A stretch of DNA of 64,000 nt, from positions 33,319 through 97,318 of the IMG/VR virus record IMGVR_UViG_3300032893_000017; one strand, 5' to 3'. The translations under genes were made by a program, and so were the position numbers. Position 1 is the stretch's first letter. Each line of letters begins with the position of its first letter. Positions 7,959 to 48,438 of the stretch are shown piece after piece. This DNA comes from a virus. The notes below the pieces were generated by a model. The model searched no databases, had not been told where the DNA came from, and saw nothing but the letters and a program-made list of their open reading frames with translations.

Positions 7959-8378
7959 TTAAAGCTTTAAAATGTTTTTTGTCTTTAGTATGATATATAT
8001 TTTCTCTTTTGCATTTGATTTGTCATGTGCTGGTTCATACTGTAATCCTTTTTCCATCATCTCATCTACTGCTTCAGTTGTCTCATGCAATAGAACATGA
8101 TAGTAAGTAACTGTTTGTAAGTTGTTGTCTATCCATACTTCATATTCTGGGATATATTTCTTTGCCATCCAGTTTCCAGCTTCATCAAAGTCCATATCAT
8201 GGTTTCTTTTTACATAAGTTCCATTTACTGTAAAGACTTTTATCTTTACTTTTTTGTAGACAAGTGTTCCTATAAAGAGTTTTTGTAAACTCCCATCCAT
8301 TTTTTCTTCATTGAATTTTTCTATGATATCTACTAGAGTTTTGAAGTCTTGCGCATCTTGTTTTAAATTATCTTCCAT
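7959..8378 (-). CDS. HExxE peptidase-like phage protein
   Basis: 139 residues. The C-terminal half contains YEVWIDNNL, then LLHETTEAVDEMMEKGLQYEPAHDKSN, which resembles small bacterial and phage proteins with a metal-binding HE helix and a downstream AH motif (minigluzincin-like). The second zinc histidine of a classical HExxH is replaced by Glu (HETTE), so catalysis is uncertain. It lies directly behind the portal gene and the small zinc peptide. Confidence 0.6.
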   Translation of the reverse strand: MEDNLKQDAQDFKTLVDIIEKFNEEKMDGSLQKLFIGTLVYKKVKIKVFTVNGTYVKRNHDMDFDEAGNWMAKKYIPEYEVWIDNNLQTVTYYHVLLHETTEAVDEMMEKGLQYEPAHDKSNAKEKIYIILKTKNILKL

Positions 8379-8482
8379 TATTTTATCCTACTAGTAAAGA
8401 TCTGTTTTTGAATTCTTCTATTATGGCCTTGCAGAAAAGTATTTTTACATTCTTGACCACAATTACAGGCGCATAAGTTCAT
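8378..8482 (-). CDS. 34-aa zinc-knuckle peptide
   Basis: Begins at ATG 8482 after an AGGAAAT-type ribosome site and ends in a TAATG overlap with the next gene. It carries CACNCGQEC and then FLQGHNRR, the same C-x-C-x-C-G-x2-C plus GHNRR pattern found at the C-terminus of the GIY-YIG endonuclease at 54.5-55.3 kb. It may be a free-standing DNA- or RNA-binding knuckle or a remnant of a homing endonuclease. Confidence 0.55.
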   Translation of the reverse strand: MNLCACNCGQECKNTFLQGHNRRIQKQIFTSRIK

Positions 8483-8494
8483 ATAATTTCCTTC

Positions 8495-10072
8495 TTATAT
8501 TATAATAGTAATATATTCCTTTTTACTTTTTTCTAATTCTTCCTCATTTATTTCAAATTGAGGTTCTTCATTTTCTTCTTTTTTATCATTTCCAAATTGC
8601 TCTTGCTGGCTTTGTTGTTGGGACATTTGATCTTGTTGTATCTTCATCTGGCGTGCTTGTAGAAAAGTAGGGTCTAATATTATCTTTCCTTCTCCATCTG
8701 GAAGAGGAGGAAGATCTTTTTCTGCCCGTAATTCATCAATAAGTAAATAACTTTTTACTCGTTTATCGTCGATTGCAACTTCCTCAGTCTGATTCCTTGC
8801 TTCTAGTCCAGCAGGTTCTATAATGAATTTGTCCCATTCTTTATCTTTGTTTTGCTTTGCTAATACTTTATTATATACTTCACATAGATTTGACATTATA
8901 TATTTCAATCCACGATCATGACTAAATGCTATCTTCTTGTCTGCATTTTCATTCATAACATTTTGTGACTGTACTAGCCTTATTCCTAATTCTTGACTGT
9001 CTGTTCCATGTATTGCAAATATCCAACTTGCTAGCATCTGTATATATTGATTGAATTCCATGTCCCTGTTTGATGGAGCTATGCTTTGCCACTTTGCATT
9101 GTACTGCAAGAATGGAGTCTTCCACATTCCTTTTATCCCTCTAAACATGGATATCCATTCTCTTTGCAGTTCTTCTAAATCTTTTCTATCTAAATTCTGT
9201 CCATCAAATGTTAATATCCCTTTTGGCTGGCTTGAAGTATTAAAGAACTCTTTATTGTATGACATTCCAAATAGCCAGCTTGTTATTATGTCTATACACA
9301 TTTCTATAAAGCTGTATCCGTAATCTCTTTTCCTTATGTCTGCTCTCATATTTGAACAGTAAAATACCATTTCCTCTTCTGTAAATGTTTCTGTTATCTT
9401 ACTGTCTATCTCCTGAACATACTTTATTTCTTTATCACCCAGGTATCCTGTCTTCTTAACTGTCTTCTTTATTGTAGTTCCGTCTAACAGCCAGTAGTCT
9501 ATCATTTCTCCTTTTCTGTTTCTTCTAGGTGTAATTGCTACTTGATCTATTGTAAGTATTTCCCTTACCATCATCTCATTCATTCCAACTAAATGATCTT
9601 TCCTTTCTTCTGCTTCTGGAAAATCTATATAACCACTATATAGGATAAACTGTCCTATCTCTTCTGCTATTTTTTGTTCTTTCTTGTCTGGGGTTCTTTT
9701 TCTGTCTTTTAGTTTTACTACAAATCCTAATTCATCGTCGTTGTATGATATTCTTGCTGCATTTCTTATTTGCATACTTCTCAAGTTGTGAATAGATGCT
9801 ATAGGACCTACTTTCTGTGCTATGTCTCTTAATACTTCAAAACTTAAATTGAAGAATCTTTCTCTTATTCCTCTGGCATTGATGCTCCATCTAAAGAATG
9901 TTGGATCTGGTTCATAAATTCCCTGTGGTGGATTTATACTTCCTCCAGACTTAGACTTTCTTAGTATCTCTGTGTCTATACTTTTTTTGAATTCTTCTAA
10001 ATCCCTGTCTATATCTATTGGAGTTGGTTCTAAATAGTCTTTTAATTTGTTTAATTCGGAAAGGTTAGCCAT
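8495..10072 (-). CDS. Portal protein
   Basis: 525 residues, the usual portal size. The sequence pattern fits phage portals: a tail-proximal beta region, then DYGYSFIEMCIDIITSW, NTSSQPKGILTFDG, an 'LQREWISMFRG' helix, and a Gln/Glu-rich disordered C-terminus (from about residue 475). Portals form the dodecameric DNA channel at one head vertex. It is the first gene after a promoter at 10109-10137 and is followed downstream by MuF-type and other head-region genes, as expected. Confidence 0.85.
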   Translation of the reverse strand: MANLSELNKLKDYLEPTPIDIDRDLEEFKKSIDTEILRKSKSGGSINPPQGIYEPDPTFFRWSINARGIRERFFNLSFEVLRDIAQKVGPIASIHNLRSMQIRNAARISYNDDELGFVVKLKDRKRTPDKKEQKIAEEIGQFILYSGYIDFPEAEERKDHLVGMNEMMVREILTIDQVAITPRRNRKGEMIDYWLLDGTTIKKTVKKTGYLGDKEIKYVQEIDSKITETFTEEEMVFYCSNMRADIRKRDYGYSFIEMCIDIITSWLFGMSYNKEFFNTSSQPKGILTFDGQNLDRKDLEELQREWISMFRGIKGMWKTPFLQYNAKWQSIAPSNRDMEFNQYIQMLASWIFAIHGTDSQELGIRLVQSQNVMNENADKKIAFSHDRGLKYIMSNLCEVYNKVLAKQNKDKEWDKFIIEPAGLEARNQTEEVAIDDKRVKSYLLIDELRAEKDLPPLPDGEGKIILDPTFLQARQMKIQQDQMSQQQSQQEQFGNDKKEENEEPQFEINEEELEKSKKEYITIII

Positions 10073-28695: not shown

Positions 28696-29208
28696 TTATA
28701 TATTTTTTCTTCTAAAGTATTCCCCCATCAATAAACTATCTCCATCTCCATGTTTCTCTATTTCTTTTTTATATTTTGGAAATAATCTACTTGCTATATC
28801 ACAACTAGCTTTTTTTAATTCTCCTTTTTCTAACCCCTTTGGGAGCATTCCTTTTTGCCATTCACGACTATCAACATAATTTAAAGAAAATCGCATTTGT
28901 TCAATTATAATTAGAGTTGCTTCCAACGCCCTTATAGCAGATACAGAAGCCTTCCACCTCATAGGATTTATCATAGGTCTTTCTAAATATACTTTTACAT
29001 TGAAATTGTTTTTAGATTCTACTGTTAATGTAAAAGCTGAAAATATAACTTTCAATCTATTTATATCTATTCTAGTAATAAATTGTTTCTGTTTCGTATA
29101 ACTTAATTCTTTTCTTACAGGAGTTAAATGAAAACTATATAACCCATCAAAGAAAATAGCTATACTACCTGAAATTCCGTTATCGATAGCAATTATCGTC
29201 TCTTTCAT
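28696..29208 (-). CDS. RuvC-like Holliday-junction resolvase
   Basis: 170 residues. RNase H-fold features: first acidic strand IAIDNGISGSIAIF at the N-terminus, VYLERPMINPMRWKAS giving the second acidic residue, and a C-terminal KHGDGDSLLMGEYF with the last acidic pair. Such phage enzymes resolve recombination junctions so concatemers can be packaged. Its start overlaps the methyltransferase stop. Confidence 0.75.
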   Translation of the reverse strand: MKETIIAIDNGISGSIAIFFDGLYSFHLTPVRKELSYTKQKQFITRIDINRLKVIFSAFTLTVESKNNFNVKVYLERPMINPMRWKASVSAIRALEATLIIIEQMRFSLNYVDSREWQKGMLPKGLEKGELKKASCDIASRLFPKYKKEIEKHGDGDSLLMGEYFRRKNI

Positions 29209-29831
29209 TTTTTATCCTTTGAATTTAAAACATATTTATTATTATCTATCCATTTTATTATTGGAATGCCTACTGGAAGAACACTTTTAAAGTATTTAAT
29301 ATTTTCCCAAATAAACCATGCATATACCATCATTCCTGTTTTATATTTTCCATCTTTCCTTCTTGTTTCTTCCAATAATGGATATCTTGTAAAAATATAA
29401 ATTTTTGTTAATGGATAACTTTCATCAAGAAATATTTTTTGTTCATATCTTTTTTGACCATGCAAATATGAAAGTGGAAGTAACATTGCAAATTTTTCTT
29501 TTGCTATTTCTTTTGATTTCTGAATAAATTCAAATGCTAACCTAAAAGGTGGATTCGTTATTATATAATCAACGGGTGTAATACAATCATTAGTTAAAAA
29601 ATTTTGATATTTATGATATAGAATATCACTTGAATAAATATTTTCTTCATTAAAAAATTTTTTTAATATTTTTCTTATTGCTCCTTTTCCACATGCAGGT
29701 TCTCTTATTTTTTTATTATAATCAAATTTTTCATTCTCTAATAATTGTTCTGTCATACTGTAAGGTGTTTGATAAAAATCTGATTTATGTCTTTGCCCTC
29801 TATTACAAGCACTAAAACATTTACCTTTCAT
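29205..29831 (-). CDS. Adenine-type DNA methyltransferase-like protein
   Basis: Start chosen at ATG 29831 (AAGGAAATAAA upstream) rather than 29849. SAM-binding motif I is REPACGKGAIRK and catalytic motif IV is ITNPPF, the pattern of N6-adenine or N4-cytosine methyltransferases. FYQTPYSMTEQLL precedes motif I, as in phage and prophage relatives. Short (208 aa) without a visible target-recognition domain. It may protect phage DNA from restriction, alongside the 7-deazaguanine system. Confidence 0.75.
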   Translation of the reverse strand: MKGKCFSACNRGQRHKSDFYQTPYSMTEQLLENEKFDYNKKIREPACGKGAIRKILKKFFNEENIYSSDILYHKYQNFLTNDCITPVDYIITNPPFRLAFEFIQKSKEIAKEKFAMLLPLSYLHGQKRYEQKIFLDESYPLTKIYIFTRYPLLEETRRKDGKYKTGMMVYAWFIWENIKYFKSVLPVGIPIIKWIDNNKYVLNSKDKK

Positions 29832-29841
29832 TTTATTTCCT

Positions 29842-30732
29842 TTAAACATATTTCTTTATTTTTTCTATCAAATGTTTCATTTCGTAACTTTCTAATTTTT
29901 TAAAAAATTCCTTCTTGTTCTTTTTTCTTCTTATACTATTCATTTCGCCATTTAACTCTTGAAATTTAACTAGCTCATAATTTTCTCTTATCTTATCTAT
30001 ATTATCTATAATAAAATTCTTTAATAAAGATGTTCCATTTGAGAATCTTAAATTATCAATAAATAATAAATCTCCTTTTATTTCTTCTAGAATAGAAATT
30101 AACTCTTTTATTGTTTTCTTATTTTCTGTTTGCTTTGCTCTGAATATCCCATGTATATTATCGCAGGCATCTCCTATAATTGCTTTAAACAGTGGATAAT
30201 ATTTTATATCCATTCCCAAACTTTCTTCTATCTCCGATTTACAGTAGACTTTATCTTCTATTTGAATTAACTTTTTATCATTTATAATATTTATAAGCCA
30301 GTCATTATCTTTAGAAATAAATAATACATTCCTTTCTTTATATTGCTTAGCAAAATAATATGCTAAATCATCTGCTTCCATTCCTTCTTTATAATATTGT
30401 TCTACATCTAAATAAGATAATAAATTCTCGAGCTCTTTTACTTTTTGTATAAAACTATCTTCAGCAGTTTTTCTGTTTGCTTTGTATTCTTTTGATATTT
30501 TCTTTTTATTACTATTTCTATCCCATAAGAAAATTATTCTTACTTGTTCTCCATATTTCATTTTTAAACCACAATAGAAATTCAATATCCCATAAAAGAT
30601 CCCTGTATCTCTTCCTTTACTGTCTTTTAGGTTTCTCATACTCCAATTATAACGGTGTACTAAATTAAGAGCATCTATTATTATTACTTCTATTCTGTTT
30701 TTTATTACAAGATCTAAGTTTCCTTTTTGCAT
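29842..30732 (-). CDS. 5'-3' exonuclease, FEN/T5-exonuclease family
   Basis: 296 residues. IIIDALNLVHRYNW and IIFLWDRNS (first acidic cluster), KEYKANRK, YYKEGMEADDLAYYFAKQY and FISKDNDWLI match the PIN-like core of FEN and PolI 5'-nucleases; then a helix-hairpin-helix-like KAIIGDACDNIHGI. It would remove RNA primers and flaps, a function absent from the phage PolA, which lacks a 5' nuclease domain. Confidence 0.85.
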   Translation of the reverse strand: MQKGNLDLVIKNRIEVIIIDALNLVHRYNWSMRNLKDSKGRDTGIFYGILNFYCGLKMKYGEQVRIIFLWDRNSNKKKISKEYKANRKTAEDSFIQKVKELENLLSYLDVEQYYKEGMEADDLAYYFAKQYKERNVLFISKDNDWLINIINDKKLIQIEDKVYCKSEIEESLGMDIKYYPLFKAIIGDACDNIHGIFRAKQTENKKTIKELISILEEIKGDLLFIDNLRFSNGTSLLKNFIIDNIDKIRENYELVKFQELNGEMNSIRRKKNKKEFFKKLESYEMKHLIEKIKKYV

Positions 30733-42439: not shown

Positions 42440-43639
42440 TTAGAATAAACTTAATTCATGCTTATTATTTGTAATGTTATAACCTAGCAGTGTCCTGTTC
42501 TCTTCTATTATCTCTAAAGGATTGGAACTTTCAAAACACTTATCTATTAACTGAAATATCTTATATTGATTTTCTAAAATCTTTTTATAAAAAGATCCTT
42601 GTCCCATATTTATAAAATTCTCTATCTTTTCTTTGAATTGAATAAAAGTATATAAATTATGCATCCCTAAAAAATAATAAAATTCACTTTTATTTCCTTC
42701 ATGAAATATCTTGTATAAATCTTTTATTGTTAATAAACTACATACAGGGCATTTACAGGGCATTTCTGTATGATTCAAATCTGTTACTTTTATATCTCGA
42801 GTAAAACATATCCCTGACATTCCATTTAAACTCTGAAATAAATTATAATTTCCCATAGAAGCAGATAATGAATAACTACTGGAATCAAAAGAAATAGTCA
42901 AGTTAATATTATTCTCATTTAATTTCTTTTGAAGATAATAAATATACATTAAGGTATCTATAGTAGTAAGACCTAAGAAATGTAGTAACTTTACTTCTTT
43001 ATCTTTTCTGTTCGCATATTTCTTGAAAAGTCCTCTTTCTTTTAAAAAAAAGAAACTTAACAAACTGTTATAAACAGGCTGTCTTCCTACACTTCCTATT
43101 GCCAATCCACCCTCAAAATCAAAATCTTTTATTCCTTGCCACCATAATTTCAAATGCTTAATACTTCGACCTTGAAGAACATTCAGAAACTTTGTTTTTC
43201 CCATTTTATTTTTATAGAAGAATTCAAAATTCTTAAGACTAATCTCCAATTTTTTCTTAAAGTTATCATCACAGTGATTTCCTTCTTTTCCATAAGGAGG
43301 GAAATCTATATTAAGAGCATAGTTTGTATTATTTTCTAACCATTCAAATATTTCACTTACAATCTTATCTGAATATTTTAAAACATTAGTTGCTAACTGA
43401 TATCCTCCACTGTCTCCTAGCACTATGCTGGTCTTATAATTTATATCAAATCTTTTTCTTATATTCTTTTTATAAAAATGTCCAGCTGTAATTAAAAAAT
43501 AAGGATAATTAAAAATCTTTTCTCTTTTATCACTTGTACCATAAAACTTAAAAGATTTATCTTTATAACAAAAGTCATTCTCAAAAATTGCACAAACAAA
43601 TCCACTTATCGCAGGAAAAAAGATTGTCTTATTATTCAT
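42440..43639 (-). CDS. dpdA: DpdA-like 7-deazaguanine DNA transglycosylase
   Basis: 399 residues, TGT/Tgt superfamily. GDSGGYQ (Asp76 in the conserved DSGG), FDFEGGLAIGSVG, a FLGLTTIDTLMY match to the TGT 'MGVGtP.dLl' strand, SFDSSSYSLSASMGN with Asp252 as likely nucleophile, and the zinc site Cys295, Cys297, Cys300 and His327. Tgt swaps a guanine in tRNA; phage DpdA swaps guanine in DNA for a 7-deazaguanine made by FolE, QueD and QueE. All three of those are encoded directly upstream, supporting the DNA role. Overlaps the glycosyltransferase gene by eight bases. No QueC or amidotransferase was found in the window. Confidence 0.85.
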   Translation of the reverse strand: MNNKTIFFPAISGFVCAIFENDFCYKDKSFKFYGTSDKREKIFNYPYFLITAGHFYKKNIRKRFDINYKTSIVLGDSGGYQLATNVLKYSDKIVSEIFEWLENNTNYALNIDFPPYGKEGNHCDDNFKKKLEISLKNFEFFYKNKMGKTKFLNVLQGRSIKHLKLWWQGIKDFDFEGGLAIGSVGRQPVYNSLLSFFFLKERGLFKKYANRKDKEVKLLHFLGLTTIDTLMYIYYLQKKLNENNINLTISFDSSSYSLSASMGNYNLFQSLNGMSGICFTRDIKVTDLNHTEMPCKCPVCSLLTIKDLYKIFHEGNKSEFYYFLGMHNLYTFIQFKEKIENFINMGQGSFYKKILENQYKIFQLIDKCFESSNPLEIIEENRTLLGYNITNNKHELSLF

Positions 43640-44648
43640 TATTCACTTCCTTAAAAATATCATCAATTCTGCAATACTTCTCTTCTAAAAATATTTTATT
43701 ATTATTCATTTGAGGAATAAACATATCATAATTATTTAATCTGTATAAAATATATTCTATCAATTGATCTTTATACCTAGAATAATTATTAAAACTTATC
43801 GTCCAATCAGAAGGATATAAAAATGCTTCATTATACATTTCTGGATAGCTTAATCTATTAGGTACACATGGAATAGCATCTAAATATAATCCTTCGAATA
43901 TTCCTATTCCCCATGTTTCTTGAAGAGAAGCAGAAAATACTATTTTACTTCTTGCTAATATTTGATGATACCCTTGCTTTGTAAGTTGAGACTTTTGACA
44001 AAATATTACTTCTACATCTTGTAATCCTTTTGCTAAATCTTCTAATATTTCTGGTTGCTTTTCTTTTGATATCCTATGAGGAAAAACAATTGTATCTGTT
44101 TTTTTAGCATATCTAAATTCATCCAATTCTTTGAAGTAATAAGGTAACCCTGTTACTATTACTTTTTTACTTACTACTGAAGAAAAATATCTTAAAATCA
44201 ATTTCTGATGATAAACAGTTGCAACAAATGATTTATCTAAATTCTGAAGTAAAGCTTCTTCAAAAAAACGAAAATATTTAAAAGAATCTCCTAATAAATC
44301 ATTTACATCATAACTTCCAGCATGCCATATTCCATAGATCTTTATCTTTTTTTGATTTAACCGTGCCATATATCTTAATGCTATTATACCATAGTGCCAT
44401 GCATCTAGAAATAAAAACTTATCTCCATCATTTATCTTTCCCTCTTTAAACAAATTGGAAAGTTGAATTATTTGTTCTGATTTCCAAATATTAGTCTGGG
44501 ATGGATCTAAGAAATTTTTTCCATTTAATTCCTCTGTACTTTTTGTTCCTTCTATTTTTTTAGAATAAGGAAATACATCATAGAACCACCTTCTCCATTG
44601 TGAAGTATATCTAGTTTCTAACTCTTCTAAATAAACAATGTACAGCAT
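43632..44648 (-). CDS. GT-B glycosyltransferase beside DpdA
   Basis: 338 residues with two Rossmann halves. C-terminal half: TIVFPHRISKEKQPEILEDL, VIFCQKSQLTKQGYHQIL, SASLQETWGIGIFEG, and NRLSYPEMY. The last two blocks recall GT4 enzymes and in particular queuosine-tRNA mannosyltransferases of the GTDC1/QTMAN type. N-terminal half has FLFLDAWHYGIIALRYM and IYGIWHAGSYDVNDLLG, a pattern also seen in phage glycosyltransferases. Its place between DpdA and the deazaguanine genes suggests it glycosylates the modified base. The donor sugar is unknown. Confidence 0.75.
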   Translation of the reverse strand: MLYIVYLEELETRYTSQWRRWFYDVFPYSKKIEGTKSTEELNGKNFLDPSQTNIWKSEQIIQLSNLFKEGKINDGDKFLFLDAWHYGIIALRYMARLNQKKIKIYGIWHAGSYDVNDLLGDSFKYFRFFEEALLQNLDKSFVATVYHQKLILRYFSSVVSKKVIVTGLPYYFKELDEFRYAKKTDTIVFPHRISKEKQPEILEDLAKGLQDVEVIFCQKSQLTKQGYHQILARSKIVFSASLQETWGIGIFEGLYLDAIPCVPNRLSYPEMYNEAFLYPSDWTISFNNYSRYKDQLIEYILYRLNNYDMFIPQMNNNKIFLEEKYCRIDDIFKEVNNE

Positions 44649-45560
44649 TTATAATCCCTTCTTAAACTTAACTAAATCTGCTAGGAAGGATTGCAATAAT
44701 AATATAGGACTTCTATAGTAACAACTCTTACACTTCCAAGAAAGCCCTTTTCCTTTCCTGTGTTTCTTTCTTAATTCTTGAATAGTTTTTGATTCCCATA
44801 TTTCCAGCAAATCTTGTTTATATAAATTCCCTAAAGGCAAATGTTTCATAAAATCAAAGCAGCATGGAACTACTGTTCCATCATTTTTTATAGAAACAGA
44901 TAAAAAAGGATTTAAACATATATCCCTTTCTCTTTTAAAATTTGATTTCTCATTCCTATTTTCTATAAAACAATCGTCAACATATCTTATAAAGATATTT
45001 TTTTTATCAAATCTTTTTATAAATAATTCTAATCTCTTTTTACTTGCAAAGAAAGTATTCTTTGTCCACTTTGTTAATAATAATTGAATATATACCATTA
45101 CCTCTTTATTTATATTCTCAAGGAAATAAGTAAGATTTAAAATAAAAGTATTCCATTTTTGAGGATACCTAGATATTTCATATTCTTTTTCATTAAAAGT
45201 ATCAAATGAAATTGTAATTGCATCAAGTATATTAAATACTCTCATATCTACAAGTGATAGATTTGTAGATAATCCTACCATTGTAGAAGTATTTTTTATT
45301 TTCTGTACAATTTTTTCAATATGAGCATCTAACATTGGTTCCCCTGCCATCTGCAACTCCACATAAGGAGTATTTCTTAAATAATTCTTTTCTATAATCA
45401 TATCTAAAAGTTTCATATCAATAAAACCTTTATTTTTTATATCCTTATTTAAACAAGCAGGGCATTTCAAATTACAAACATCTGTAACCTCTATTTGATA
45501 AATATATGGATAAGTAACATTATGCATAAAATTAAGTTTATCTTCAAAATATTTATTCAT
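44649..45560 (-). CDS. Radical-SAM/SPASM protein
   Basis: Start taken at ATG 45560 with AGGAAGG upstream, leaving an eight-base overlap with the previous gene. 303 residues. The 4Fe-4S motif is CNLKCPAC, followed by MAGEPMLD (GGEP-like) and TISFDTFNEKEYE. C-terminal auxiliary-cluster (SPASM-type) Cys: CLNPFLSV, VVPCCFDF and WKCKSCYY. SPASM enzymes modify peptides, proteins or small molecules by radical chemistry. In this operon, next to DpdA and a glycosyltransferase, a role in tailoring the deazaguanine base or its substituent is plausible but unproven. Confidence 0.8.
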   Translation of the reverse strand: MNKYFEDKLNFMHNVTYPYIYQIEVTDVCNLKCPACLNKDIKNKGFIDMKLLDMIIEKNYLRNTPYVELQMAGEPMLDAHIEKIVQKIKNTSTMVGLSTNLSLVDMRVFNILDAITISFDTFNEKEYEISRYPQKWNTFILNLTYFLENINKEVMVYIQLLLTKWTKNTFFASKKRLELFIKRFDKKNIFIRYVDDCFIENRNEKSNFKRERDICLNPFLSVSIKNDGTVVPCCFDFMKHLPLGNLYKQDLLEIWESKTIQELRKKHRKGKGLSWKCKSCYYRSPILLLQSFLADLVKFKKGL

Positions 45561-45882
45561 ATTCCTTCCTACTTCCATTCTCATTATCCTCACTTACCTC
45601 TATTATTATTTTTCTATTTGGATACTGTGTATGAATCTTTAGATGCAAATTATCGCTTATCATTTCACAGGACATATTATTAAAATTAGTTGTCTTAATA
45701 ACTCCTTCACAAAAATGCTTAAACTCAATAAATTCTATATCTCTATCCTCATGAAAGACTTCTAAATATACTTTTGCATGAAAAATATGTCGATGGGTAT
45801 ATCTTAAAAAAGAAACTTCTTCTGGAGCATAGGGATAGCAATGGAATCCTTCAAAGCTAAAAGTAATCCAAACATAATTCAT
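45553..45882 (-). CDS. QueD-like T-fold protein (second copy), 109 aa
   Basis: ITFSFEGFHCYPYAPEEVSF, then YTHRHIFHAKVYLEVFHED and IEFIEFKHFC, follow the strand and His pattern of 6-pyruvoyl-tetrahydropterin synthase/QueD (AH…HGH…V…DF..LK), but the Cys of the active site is displaced. I recall this family from many phages as an unnamed protein. In the modification operon it may be a second T-fold enzyme or a helper. Preceded by AAGGAGATAAA. Confidence 0.55.
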   Translation of the reverse strand: MNYVWITFSFEGFHCYPYAPEEVSFLRYTHRHIFHAKVYLEVFHEDRDIEFIEFKHFCEGVIKTTNFNNMSCEMISDNLHLKIHTQYPNRKIIIEVSEDNENGSRKEYE

Positions 45883-45883
45883 T

Positions 45884-46792
45884 TTATCTCCTTATTAAGT
45901 TTAAAAATTCATTTCTTACTTCTGTTTTTTCAAAAACCCCTCTAATTGCTGAAGTTGTCATTTCTGCATCTTGGGATTTTATTCCTCTTGATATCATGCA
46001 GAGATGCTTTGCTTCTACTAAAACCATTACACCTTTTGGTTGCAAATATTCCATTAAACAGTCAGCTATTTGTGCTGTCATTTTTTCTTGTATCTGTAAC
46101 CTTCTAGCAAATATTTCAACAAGCCTCGCTAACTTACTCAAACCAATAACTCTTTTATCAGGTATATATCCTAAAAAGCATTGACCAAAGAAAGGCTGCA
46201 AGTGATGCTCGCAGTTAGAATAGAAATTTATGCTCTTCAAAACCACCATTTCATTACATGCACCCTCTTCAAAAGTTGTCATTATTTCTTTTGGATCCAT
46301 TTTATATCCTGCATACAATTCATTCCAACTCTTTATTATTCTTCTTGGAGTTTCTTTCAATCCCTCTCTATTTGGATCTTCTCCAATATACTCTAATTGT
46401 CTTATTATATTATCTTCTATATCATTTTCTTTTTCAAATGGAAACTGTATCCATCTATCTATCGTTTCGACATAATAATCAACTTTATCTATATTTTTAT
46501 TTTTTAAAAATAAAACTGCTTTATCGTAATCACGAAACATTCCTAAAGTCTTTCCTGAATCTATCACATCGTCTATTATTAAAACTTCATCTTTCGGAAA
46601 ATCTATAACTTTATTTAAATCATTTTCAATTTCCAATTCCAAATATTTATTCATCTCTTGTGCAACAAATAAACCATTCTTTGGAATTGGATACAAATAC
46701 TTATATTTATCTTTAGATATTTGAAAAGCCAATATCCTACATAATCTTTTAAACTCTGGATAATCTATCTCATATTTATTAACTTGTGACAT
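45884..46792 (-). CDS. folE: Phosphoribosyltransferase-GTP cyclohydrolase I fusion
   Basis: ATG 46792 is preferred over the in-frame TTG at 46810, with GGAGG upstream. 302 residues: about 1-120 is a type-I PRTase-like domain with the PRPP loop VLIIDDVIDSGKT; about 121-302 is FolE, with GEDPNREGLKETPRR, NFYSNCEHHLQPFFG (Cys194, His196, His197), VIGLSKLARLVEIFARRLQ and KHLCMISRGIK (Cys265). FolE opens GTP to dihydroneopterin triphosphate, the first step to 7-deazaguanines. The fused PRTase could salvage a purine to GTP and feed the enzyme. Confidence 0.85.
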   Translation of the reverse strand: MSQVNKYEIDYPEFKRLCRILAFQISKDKYKYLYPIPKNGLFVAQEMNKYLELEIENDLNKVIDFPKDEVLIIDDVIDSGKTLGMFRDYDKAVLFLKNKNIDKVDYYVETIDRWIQFPFEKENDIEDNIIRQLEYIGEDPNREGLKETPRRIIKSWNELYAGYKMDPKEIMTTFEEGACNEMVVLKSINFYSNCEHHLQPFFGQCFLGYIPDKRVIGLSKLARLVEIFARRLQIQEKMTAQIADCLMEYLQPKGVMVLVEAKHLCMISRGIKSQDAEMTTSAIRGVFEKTEVRNEFLNLIRR

Positions 46793-47334
46793 TGTAAACC
46801 TAACCTCCAACCTTTTATATTCATAATCATATCAATAAATTCTTTTTTATTTGATTCTGGCTGTAAATAAAAATATTTTATTTTATAAAATTCTGAAACT
46901 TTATCTCTATAATAATTCAATTCTTTTATTTCTTGCCCATAATAAACCATTTTTAATTCATCACAAAATAACTGTTTGAAATCCCGATTTTTTGGACTTA
47001 ATGTTATCCAATCCAAATACTGCAAAAGATCATCTAACTTTTTATTTCCATTTGTTTCTAGAAATAAGTAATATTTATTTAATTTTAAAAATCTTAATAA
47101 ATCAACATCTATCTGTAATGTTGGTTCTCCTCCCGTTAAAACTATCTTGTCTGTTTCATATTTTTTAATTTCTTCCAAAATCATTTCCTTGGAGAACTGT
47201 GAACCTGCAAAATGGTCCGTATCACAATAACCACATTTCTCATCACATCCGGCAAATCTTAGAAATACACATTTTTCTCCAGTATTGGCACCTTCACCTT
47301 GAGCAGAAAAAAATATTTCATTTATTATATACAT
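46765..47334 (-). CDS. queE: 7-carboxy-7-deazaguanine synthase
   Basis: Start at ATG 47334, after GGAGGG and overlapping the previous stop as TAATG. 189 residues. EIFFSAQGEGANTG and the radical-SAM motif CDEKCGYCD (C-x3-C-x2-C), then IVLTGGEPTLQ, and a short C-terminus with KYFYLQPES are diagnostic for QueE. It converts the QueD product CPH4 to CDG. Encoded with FolE and QueD in the same operon. Confidence 0.9.
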   Translation of the reverse strand: MYIINEIFFSAQGEGANTGEKCVFLRFAGCDEKCGYCDTDHFAGSQFSKEMILEEIKKYETDKIVLTGGEPTLQIDVDLLRFLKLNKYYLFLETNGNKKLDDLLQYLDWITLSPKNRDFKQLFCDELKMVYYGQEIKELNYYRDKVSEFYKIKYFYLQPESNKKEFIDMIMNIKGWRLGLQCHKLINMR

Positions 47335-47666
47335 TAAATTACCCTCCATTCTTCAAGTGATACAAATATTTGCTTTTCATATCCTTGAAACTTCATTACC
47401 ATTCCTTTCTCTATAATCTCTTCTTTTGTTAAAGTATAATTATCAAACATTACTATATCTTTGTCTCTAAGTTTTTCCAGAATTAATTCAGAAACTCCAA
47501 ACATCTCCTCTCCAGTTATTCTATTCGTAAAAGATTGAGGATTGTTTTTAACATAGTATTTTATTCCTTTTCTTTCAAAGAAACTTCCTATCTTTCTTTT
47601 TCTACCATTTTCGTTTTCTAATTCTAAAAAAACATTATTGTCTTTTATTGTTAGTTTATTTGACAT
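47334..47666 (-). CDS. Hypothetical protein between QueE and QueD, 110 aa
   Basis: Beta-rich protein (NNVFLELENENGRKRKIGSF; NNPQSFTNRITGEEMFGVSE). No domain recognised. Its conserved placement between two pathway genes (TAATG overlaps on both sides) suggests a linked role. Confidence 0.6.
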   Translation of the reverse strand: MSNKLTIKDNNVFLELENENGRKRKIGSFFERKGIKYYVKNNPQSFTNRITGEEMFGVSELILEKLRDKDIVMFDNYTLTKEEIIEKGMVMKFQGYEKQIFVSLEEWRVI

Positions 47667-48046
47667 TAAAAATCTCCTACTTCTGCATAGGTCTTTTTTC
47701 CTACTGATGTCTCATAAAATCTAACTTTAAATTGAAGTTCAGAATTTCTATTTTTAAAAAACCTATATATATCCAAACATAAATTCTCTGCGGTTGGATT
47801 AATATTTTTATAATCTATATCCTTATTCGAACACTCATTCAAACATTTATGATCAAACTGTTCTTTTATTGATTTAATATTATTAAAATCAAAAAGCATT
47901 CCTGTTTCATTTAGCTGACTTTCATCTCCTTTAATCCAAAGTCTTATTAACCCTGAATGCCCATGGAGGTTTTTGCAATTCCCTTCATAGCCACGTAAAT
48001 AATGAGCATAGTCAATTACTGTCTCGGTGTAAACTGTTATTAGCAT
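47666..48046 (-). CDS. queD: 6-carboxy-tetrahydropterin synthase
   Basis: 126 residues, normal for QueD. Zinc ligands His15, His28 and His30 (DYAHYLRG; NLHGHSG) and catalytic Cys24 (GNCKNLHGH) are present, with LFDFNNIKSI, DHKCLNE and NPTAENLC. It makes 6-carboxy-tetrahydropterin for QueE. Its start lies inside the end of a 58-aa gene. Confidence 0.9.
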   Translation of the reverse strand: MLITVYTETVIDYAHYLRGYEGNCKNLHGHSGLIRLWIKGDESQLNETGMLFDFNNIKSIKEQFDHKCLNECSNKDIDYKNINPTAENLCLDIYRFFKNRNSELQFKVRFYETSVGKKTYAEVGDF

Positions 48047-48188
48047 CTTTATCTCCTTGTATAATACCTTTGTATTCTACACATCTGTCACATCTTTTGC
48101 ATATTTCTTTCCTATAACATTTCATCTCTGTTATACTACAAATATTTTCCCTTGGTACTCTTGCTTCTACTCTATTAAACTTTCGCAT
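48012..48188 (-). CDS. 58-aa Cys-rich protein
   Basis: ATG 48188 after AGGAAAAAC. CSITEMKCYRKEICKRCDRC gives five Cys in about twenty residues, enough for a metal or Fe-S site. It overlaps queD by 35 bases. Function unknown. Confidence 0.55.
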   Translation of the reverse strand: MRKFNRVEARVPRENICSITEMKCYRKEICKRCDRCVEYKGIIQGDKDANNSLHRDSN

Positions 48189-48207
48189 TGTTTTTCCTAT
48201 TTAACAA

Positions 48208-48438
48208 TTATAACTCTTCCTCTATCTTTTCAAATAAATCTATTGAATATGAAAATTTTATATTCTTATCATCCATAACATTAATTGAATACATATTTCC
48301 TAAATAAGAATAAAGACATTCCTTAGATATTATATTATATATCTTTCCATAAGTTAATTGTCCTTCATAATTTTTATTTATACATCTTACTTTATCACCT
48401 TGATTTAAACTTTCAAAACTTTTTATATTATCTTCCAT
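48208..48438 (-). CDS. Small SH3-like protein, 76 aa; possibly leaderless
   Basis: NQGDKVRCINKNYEGQLTYG, then KIYNIISKE, looks like an SH3/KOW-like barrel. It is the first gene of the modification operon. The -10 box ends five bases before its ATG, so the message would begin at or next to the start codon and no ribosome site fits. Confidence 0.6.
   Translation of the reverse strand: MEDNIKSFESLNQGDKVRCINKNYEGQLTYGKIYNIISKECLYSYLGNMYSINVMDDKNIKFSYSIDLFEKIEEEL

What the first reader, a model, noticed from the sequence alone, without database searches (positions are those of the whole stretch)
42440..48438. Complete phage operon for a 7-deazaguanine DNA modification, without QueC
Seen: queD, queE, folE, a QueD-like gene and a DpdA-type transglycosylase with intact zinc and Asp motifs lie in one overlapping minus-strand operon behind one promoter. 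Known: phage DpdA inserts 7-deazaguanines into DNA and protects against restriction; FolE, QueD and QueE give CDG. Inference: no QueC or amidotransferase is present here, so the base in DNA may be CDG or a derivative made by the unusual neighbours, or host QueC is used to reach preQ0.
Basis: partly seen in the sequence, partly recalled or inferred. Interest (0 to 1): 0.88.

Follow-up and report, generated by a model that had tools for sequence, protein, structure and literature searches.

The report
Phage operon for sugar-tagged guanine DNA
This virus of bacteria carries a gene set that most likely swaps guanine in its DNA for an altered guanine and then attaches a sugar, through a side branch of a known pathway that avoids the usual enzyme QueC, and relatives of this set occur in many other phages, several of them cultured, so the predicted DNA base can be tested.

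Summary
QueD, QueE, FolE, a QueD-like protein and a DpdA-type transglycosylase lie in one tightly packed minus-strand run, and no QueC is found in the 97-kb record.

At least 575 stretches in IMG/VR encode relatives of the glycosyltransferase. In 85 loci examined it sits on the same strand as DpdA (78) and the QueD-like gene (80), usually with FolE, QueE and a phosphoribosyltransferase. Several gene orders and unrelated cultured phages are represented (PA5oct/Paride, ACP17, X1, BUCT-ZZ01, Phosso). None of these five complete genomes has a QueC match over the family cut-off. At one conserved site ACP17 carries glycosyltransferase + QueD-like gene where its relative Marzo carries QueC. The missing QueC is therefore a different branch, not a gap for the host to fill.

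Best reading: CDG is converted by the QueD-fold enzyme (probably decarboxylated), inserted by DpdA, and glycosylated; the freed guanine is salvaged back to GTP. Order of steps, sugar and attachment site are inferred. Nothing here is biochemically shown.

The parts
48208..48438 (-). 76-aa small protein, unknown function, first gene of the run
   Evidence: ORF; only weak PHROG matches
48012..48188 (-). 58-aa cysteine-rich ORF, unknown; overlaps QueD start
   Evidence: ORF; no family match
47666..48046 (-). QueD, 6-carboxytetrahydropterin synthase
   Evidence: PF01242 E 1.9e-22; TIGR03367 E 1.1e-20 (below NCBIfam cut-off); catalytic C24 and HGH 28-30
47334..47666 (-). 110-aa protein, unknown function
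   Evidence: no family match and no homologue in the loci examined
46765..47349 (-). QueE, 7-carboxy-7-deazaguanine (CDG) synthase
   Evidence: TIGR04508 E 1.2e-30 (below its cut-off), C35xxxC39xxC42; profile unites it with annotated phage QueE proteins
45884..46810 (-). fusion: N-terminal xanthine/guanine phosphoribosyltransferase-like domain (about residues 10-127) + C-terminal FolE (GTP cyclohydrolase I)
   Evidence: PF01227 E 1.4e-70 at 132-307; NF006613 E 1.7e-8 (below cut-off); DDVIDSGKT and WIQFPFE motifs; fusion-free phosphoribosyltransferase profile E 1.5e-7
45553..45882 (-). q109: QueD-fold protein (phrog_17812) without the QueD catalytic cysteine; proposed QueC replacement acting on CDG
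   Evidence: phrog_17812 E 1.9e-24; AlphaFold pLDDT 94; E. coli QueD TM 0.79; invariant H14, H30, H32, E73, E98
44649..45593 (-). radical-SAM/SPASM (twitch) enzyme; proposed tailoring of sugar or base
   Evidence: PF04055 E 9e-8, PF13186 E 2e-15; C40xxxC44xxC47; best solved match BtrN over the SPASM region, E 6e-7; homologues at the same place in L016 and, more distantly, L024
43632..44648 (-). GT-B retaining-type glycosyltransferase, conserved partner of DpdA and q109
   Evidence: AlphaFold pLDDT 90, GT4 folds BshA/MshA/SenB/TarM; EX7E E244/E252, R192/K197 invariant in 42 homologues
42440..43639 (-). DpdA-type DNA guanine transglycosylase
   Evidence: PF01702 E 1.2e-5; D76SGGYQ, H220, D252, Zn C295/C297/C300/H327; related to PA5oct, ACP17, X1 and BUCT-ZZ01 DpdA

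Best explanation
The operon encodes a QueC-independent DNA hypermodification pathway. FolE, QueD and QueE make 7-carboxy-7-deazaguanine (CDG). The QueD-fold protein q109 takes the place of QueC and converts CDG to another base, most likely by decarboxylation to 7-deazaguanine. DpdA exchanges guanine in phage DNA for that base. The glycosyltransferase adds a sugar, on the base in DNA or before insertion. The radical-SAM enzyme probably tailors the sugar or the base. The phosphoribosyltransferase domain fused to FolE salvages the guanine released by DpdA to GMP, which host kinases turn back into GTP for FolE. The product hides the DNA from nucleases. Shown: gene content, order, folds, catalytic motifs, co-occurrence and the swap with QueC. 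Inferred: the decarboxylation, the glycosylation of the deazaguanine, the salvage loop, the order of steps and the protective role.
For: All pathway genes with intact motifs. GT, DpdA and q109 co-occur on one strand in 85 loci (DpdA 78, q109 80), in several gene orders; Phosso and PhiXhv-12 keep DpdA elsewhere in the genome. No QueC over cut-off in 5 complete genomes with the module, QueD in all 5. ACP17 versus Marzo: recombinase, FolE, DpdA, QueE and helicase shared, GT+q109 in one, QueC in the other. Sugar-nucleotide-type genes recur near GT (epimerase 26 loci, cytidylyltransferase-like 12) and a PIG-L deacetylase sits in the related operon L024. Phosphoribosyltransferase in 59 GT loci and none of the q109-only or QueC neighbourhoods examined.
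Against: No chemical data. q109's reaction is unknown; the decarboxylase idea rests partly on a paper I could not read (Cui et al. 2023). 7-Deazaguanine has no obvious hydroxyl to glycosylate, so the sugar would have to be C-linked, or q109 makes something else. The GT acceptor could be other than the base. The 80 IMG/VR loci were chosen by GT similarity and are dominated by one phage group. The record itself shows no recognisable sugar-nucleotide gene on inspection, so the donor would come from the host.
Confidence: 0.55

Rival explanations
1. The final base in DNA is simple, dCDG or 2'-deoxy-7-deazaguanosine, inserted by DpdA; the glycosyltransferase acts on something else or only at a trace level.
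For: Phages such as Cellulophaga phiST carry q109 with FolE, QueD and QueE but no GT, so the base can stand without a sugar. From memory, Cui et al. 2023 reported dCDG and dDG in phage DNA.
Against: GT accompanies DpdA/q109 in 78-80 of 85 GT loci in several gene orders, with sugar-type genes nearby.
Confidence: 0.22
2. Host QueC completes the path to preQ0, and DpdA inserts preQ0.
For: Hosts often have QueC; hosts contribute to some phage pathways (PMC6884629).
Against: QueC is missing over cut-off from all five complete genomes with the module and GT+q109 stands where a related phage has QueC; q109 would have no role.
Confidence: 0.07
3. The glycosyltransferase decorates another target (hydroxymethylated pyrimidine, virion protein or host envelope) and is only a neighbour.
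For: Phage glycosyltransferases of these kinds are common (established knowledge).
Against: No PF00303-type hydroxymethylase or thymidylate synthase in this record or in ACP17, X1 or BUCT-ZZ01 (other routes to hydroxymethyl bases not tested); strict linkage to DpdA and q109 across lineages.
Confidence: 0.1
4. DpdA here is a tRNA transglycosylase and the operon alters tRNA (a glycosylated queuosine-like base).
For: TGT ancestry with zinc ligands kept; glycosylated queuosine exists in animal tRNA (PMC12518689).
Against: The run continues into clamp, polymerase and clamp-loader genes. ACP17, X1 and BUCT-ZZ01 proteins are similar to DpdA2 of phage nt-1, whose DNA contains dPreQ0 (PMC6884629). No tRNA gene in the window and no QTMAN_N domain in the record.
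Confidence: 0.05

Closest known systems
Phage 7-deazaguanine DNA modification with DpdA/DpdA2 (phages 9g, nt-1; Hutinet et al. 2019, PMC6884629)
   Same: FolE, QueD and QueE plus a TGT-family DpdA; the DpdA of ACP17, X1 and BUCT-ZZ01 is similar to nt-1 DpdA2
   Different: No QueC; q109, a glycosyltransferase and a phosphoribosyltransferase are added
QueC-less phage 7-deazaguanines dCDG/dDG and the predicted CDG decarboxylase DpdL (Cui et al. 2023, NAR 51:9214; details from memory, paper not held)
   Same: Stops at CDG without QueC; q109 is also in Cellulophaga phage phiST. q109 may be DpdL, but I could not compare sequences
   Different: phiST has no glycosyltransferase by profile and no phosphoribosyltransferase in the stretch examined
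Bacillithiol pathway BshA/BshB
   Same: GT fold closest to BshA, MshA, SenB and TarM; a PIG-L deacetylase (the BshB family) sits beside GT in the related operon L024
   Different: Acceptor unknown; no PIG-L in the window's operon; low sequence identity (about 10%)
Glucosylated hydroxymethylcytosine of T-even phages
   Same: A phage glycosyltransferase that would decorate a modified DNA base
   Different: Different base chemistry; no thymidylate-synthase-family hydroxymethylase in the record

Membership tests
DpdA (DNA guanine transglycosylase) | TGT-type active-site aspartates | tested here: met
   D76 in DSGGYQ and D252, invariant in 29 homologues
DpdA (DNA guanine transglycosylase) | zinc ligands of the TGT family | tested here: met
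   C295, C297, C300, H327 in the window protein; not conserved in the ACP17, X1 and BUCT-ZZ01 proteins
DpdA (DNA guanine transglycosylase) | base exchange in DNA rather than tRNA | not testable with these tools
   needs nucleoside analysis; context only
QueD (q109) | QueD/PTPS fold | tested here: met
   E. coli QueD TM 0.79
QueD (q109) | three metal-binding histidines | tested here: met
   H14, H30, H32 invariant
QueD (q109) | catalytic cysteine before the HGH motif | tested here: not met
   no cysteine at that place in the q109 alignment, while true QueD of the window has C24
DpdL (CDG decarboxylase) | sequence match to the published family | not testable with these tools
   paper and sequences not held
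DpdL (CDG decarboxylase) | decarboxylates CDG | not testable with these tools
   biochemistry needed
preQ0 pathway (QueC) | QueC gene | tested here: not met
   no PF06508 match in the 97-kb record; record may be incomplete
GT-B / GT4 glycosyltransferase | EX7E motif with Arg and Lys donor-binding residues | tested here: met
   E244/E252, R192/K197 invariant
GT-B / GT4 glycosyltransferase | GT-B fold | tested here: met
   model pLDDT 90; BshA E 6e-8, TM 0.70
GT-B / GT4 glycosyltransferase | Pfam Glycos_transf_1 match | tested here: inconclusive
   none for the window protein; over cut-off only for the X1 homologue
QTMAN (tRNA-queuosine mannosyltransferase) | QTMAN_N domain (PF12038) | tested here: not met
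   no match in the record at E <= 10; the control rang only weakly in one genome
xanthine/guanine phosphoribosyltransferase (N-terminus of FolE fusion) | PRPP-binding loop and XGPRT C-terminal W-x2-[FY]-P-[WFY]-E motif | tested here: met
   DDVIDSGKT and WIQFPFE; domain is short and scores below the NCBIfam cut-off

The most novel reading that the evidence does not exclude
Phages with this module carry a sugar directly on a 7-deazaguanine in their DNA, possibly as a C-glycoside at C7 after q109 removes the carboxyl group, with guanine recycled by a dedicated phosphoribosyltransferase. I found no description of such a DNA base in anything I could open.
Probability: 0.45. Interest if true: 0.88.

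Novelty: new variant of a known kind. Interest (0 to 1): 0.73.

Why it matters
It turns a seemingly incomplete pathway into a distinct, widespread branch of phage DNA hypermodification: at least 575 glycosyltransferase relatives in IMG/VR, plus cultured Pseudomonas phages such as PA5oct and Paride. It predicts a glycosylated 7-deazaguanine, a QueC replacement enzyme and a guanine-salvage step. Because cultured laboratory phages carry the module, one nucleoside LC-MS run could settle it. It is also a candidate counter-defence against restriction.

Tried and rejected
Host-QueC completion: disfavoured by the QueC swap. QTMAN membership: a motif resemblance I recalled was tested through PF12038 and not met. 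T4-like hydroxymethyl-base glycosylation: no PF00303 enzyme in the record. GlmS in PhiXhv-12: I first took the record's annotation at face value, but Pfam shows a glutamine amidotransferase-QueC fusion, so that phage is a QueC-bearing case with a divergent GT homologue and no q109 match. In the same phage the QueC search with whole-record handles was not run. Single-protein scans of IMG/VR with DpdA and GT found nothing; only the four-sequence GT alignment worked. A genome-contig scan with the GT alignment found no relative. Sequence profiles of DpdA and GT found no significant solved structure (the six-sequence GT profile gave one weak hit at E 0.026). An early phosphoribosyltransferase profile was contaminated by the FolE half of the fusion and was rebuilt without it. 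The library did not hold Cui et al. 2023 or the 2024 review, and papers on Paride and Callisto did not mention 7-deazaguanine.
Full report
WHAT IS THERE. The window is bases 33319-97318 of a 97,318-bp virus record, 27.7% G+C. On the minus strand, from 48438 down to 42440, lie ten closely packed genes: two small ORFs, QueD, a 110-aa unknown, QueE, a phosphoribosyltransferase-FolE fusion, a 109-aa QueD-like protein (q109), a radical-SAM/SPASM enzyme, a glycosyltransferase (GT) and a DpdA-type transglycosylase. From QueD to DpdA they overlap or abut (gaps -46 to +1). The run then continues with gaps of -4 to +9 into sliding clamp, UDG-PolA and clamp loader, so the modification genes are part of a replication gene run.

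CATALYTIC STATE. DpdA keeps the TGT active site (D76SGGYQ, H220, D252) and a C-C-C-H zinc site (C295, C297, C300, H327). D76, H220 and D252 are invariant in 29 homologues. QueD has C24 and HGH. QueE has CxxxCxxC. GT has the EX7E pair E244/E252 and R192/K197, all invariant in 42 homologues. q109 models at pLDDT 94 and matches E. coli QueD at TM 0.79. It keeps three histidines and two glutamates but has no cysteine just before HRH, so it should not do the QueD reaction.

THE GLYCOSYLTRANSFERASE IS THE KEY. Its relatives in GenBank phages lie beside 7-deazaguanine genes in Pseudomonas PA5oct/Paride, Sinorhizobium Phosso, Acidovorax ACP17 and Xanthomonas X1, and by profile in Synechococcus BUCT-ZZ01. 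An alignment of four copies recovers at least 575 relatives in IMG/VR. In the best 80 plus five cultured phages, DpdA is present in 78 of 85 loci, q109 in 80, FolE in 67, phosphoribosyltransferase in 59 and QueE in 58. All are on the GT's strand, with a median gap to q109 of 239 bases. Gene order differs among lineages, so the association is not simple common synteny, but the IMG/VR set was selected by GT similarity and is dominated by one phage group, so the counts are not independent. Phosso and PhiXhv-12 keep DpdA elsewhere in the genome.

THE MISSING QUEC. QueC is absent from the window's record, over cut-off in none of the five complete genomes with the module, and in none of 44 IMG/VR records, many of which are fragments. 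QueD is present in all five complete genomes. Among seven q109-bearing phages without the GT, one (D479) has a partial QueC-like hit. By contrast nt-1, pf16 and Marzo, whose DpdA is similar to the ACP17 one, have QueC and neither q109 nor GT. Marzo and ACP17 share flanking recombinase, FolE, DpdA, QueE and helicase, with QueC in one and GT+q109 in the other. Marzo's QueC match is partial (32.6 bits). This swap is the strongest argument that q109+GT is an alternative branch.

SUGAR AND SALVAGE. Near the GT recur an epimerase (26 loci), HIT proteins (38), cytidylyltransferase-like (12) and GFO/IDH-like (13) genes. L024, a relative with the window's gene order, adds a PIG-L deacetylase between its radical-SAM gene and the GT. 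The closest solved folds of the GT are BshA, MshA, SenB and TarM. The radical-SAM protein's best solved sequence match is BtrN, over the SPASM region only; tailoring of the sugar is an inference. The phosphoribosyltransferase occurs as a separate gene in 59 GT loci, is fused to FolE in the window, and was found in none of the q109-only or QueC neighbourhoods examined. Since DpdA should release one guanine for each base inserted (known TGT mechanism), a guanine phosphoribosyltransferase tied to FolE is best read as recycling.

MECHANISM PROPOSED. GTP to CDG by FolE, QueD and QueE; CDG to a QueC-independent base by q109, probably 7-deazaguanine; insertion by DpdA; sugar transfer by GT; possible tailoring by the radical-SAM enzyme; guanine salvage. 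The decarboxylase idea leans on my memory of Cui et al. 2023, which I could not read here. A glycosylated 7-deazaguanine DNA base was not described in any paper I could open, but the library excludes most subscription journals and preprints, so novelty is provisional.

VERDICT. Observation confirmed, interpretation partly supported. New variant of a known kind (7-deazaguanine DNA modification), with a real chance that the product is a new class of DNA base.

Noticed in passing
L005:6618-8141 (Xanthomonas phage PhiXhv-12, XYR92795.1): Annotated as glutamine-fructose-6-phosphate aminotransferase but Pfam shows a glutamine amidotransferase-QueC fusion (QueC E 2e-49); it lies beside a PIG-L deacetylase, a divergent GT homologue and a GFO/IDH-like oxidoreductase.
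   Followed up: partly
L106:2520-3770 (Stenotrophomonas phage Marzo): An inositol-1-phosphate synthase gene sits inside the FolE-QueC-DpdA-QueE operon, hinting at another tailored base in QueC-bearing relatives.
   Followed up: no
L040:6716-7240 and homologues in 69 loci: A 174-aa protein family of unknown function with no Pfam match lies about 1.3 kb upstream of the GT in most of the IMG/VR loci.
   Followed up: no
L008:8789-9568 and homologues in L009-L012, L014: The phrog_20335 family (259-422 aa) recurs with q109 in phages lacking the DpdA found here; motifs and a weak profile match suggest a divergent DpdA-like transglycosylase.
   Followed up: partly
L012:7212-8363 and L014:7440-8321: q109 is fused to other domains: an unidentified N-terminus in Vibrio phage Bakedbeans and a homing-endonuclease-like domain in Chryseobacterium phage MA9V-3.
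   Followed up: no
window 29205-29849, minus strand: ORF that by eye looks like an N6-adenine DNA methyltransferase, which could be a second DNA modification of this phage; not tested against a family library.
   Followed up: no
L015:5337-6680 and 8328-9494: Synechococcus phage BUCT-ZZ01 carries two GT homologues flanking DpdA and q109, suggesting more than one sugar transfer.
   Followed up: no
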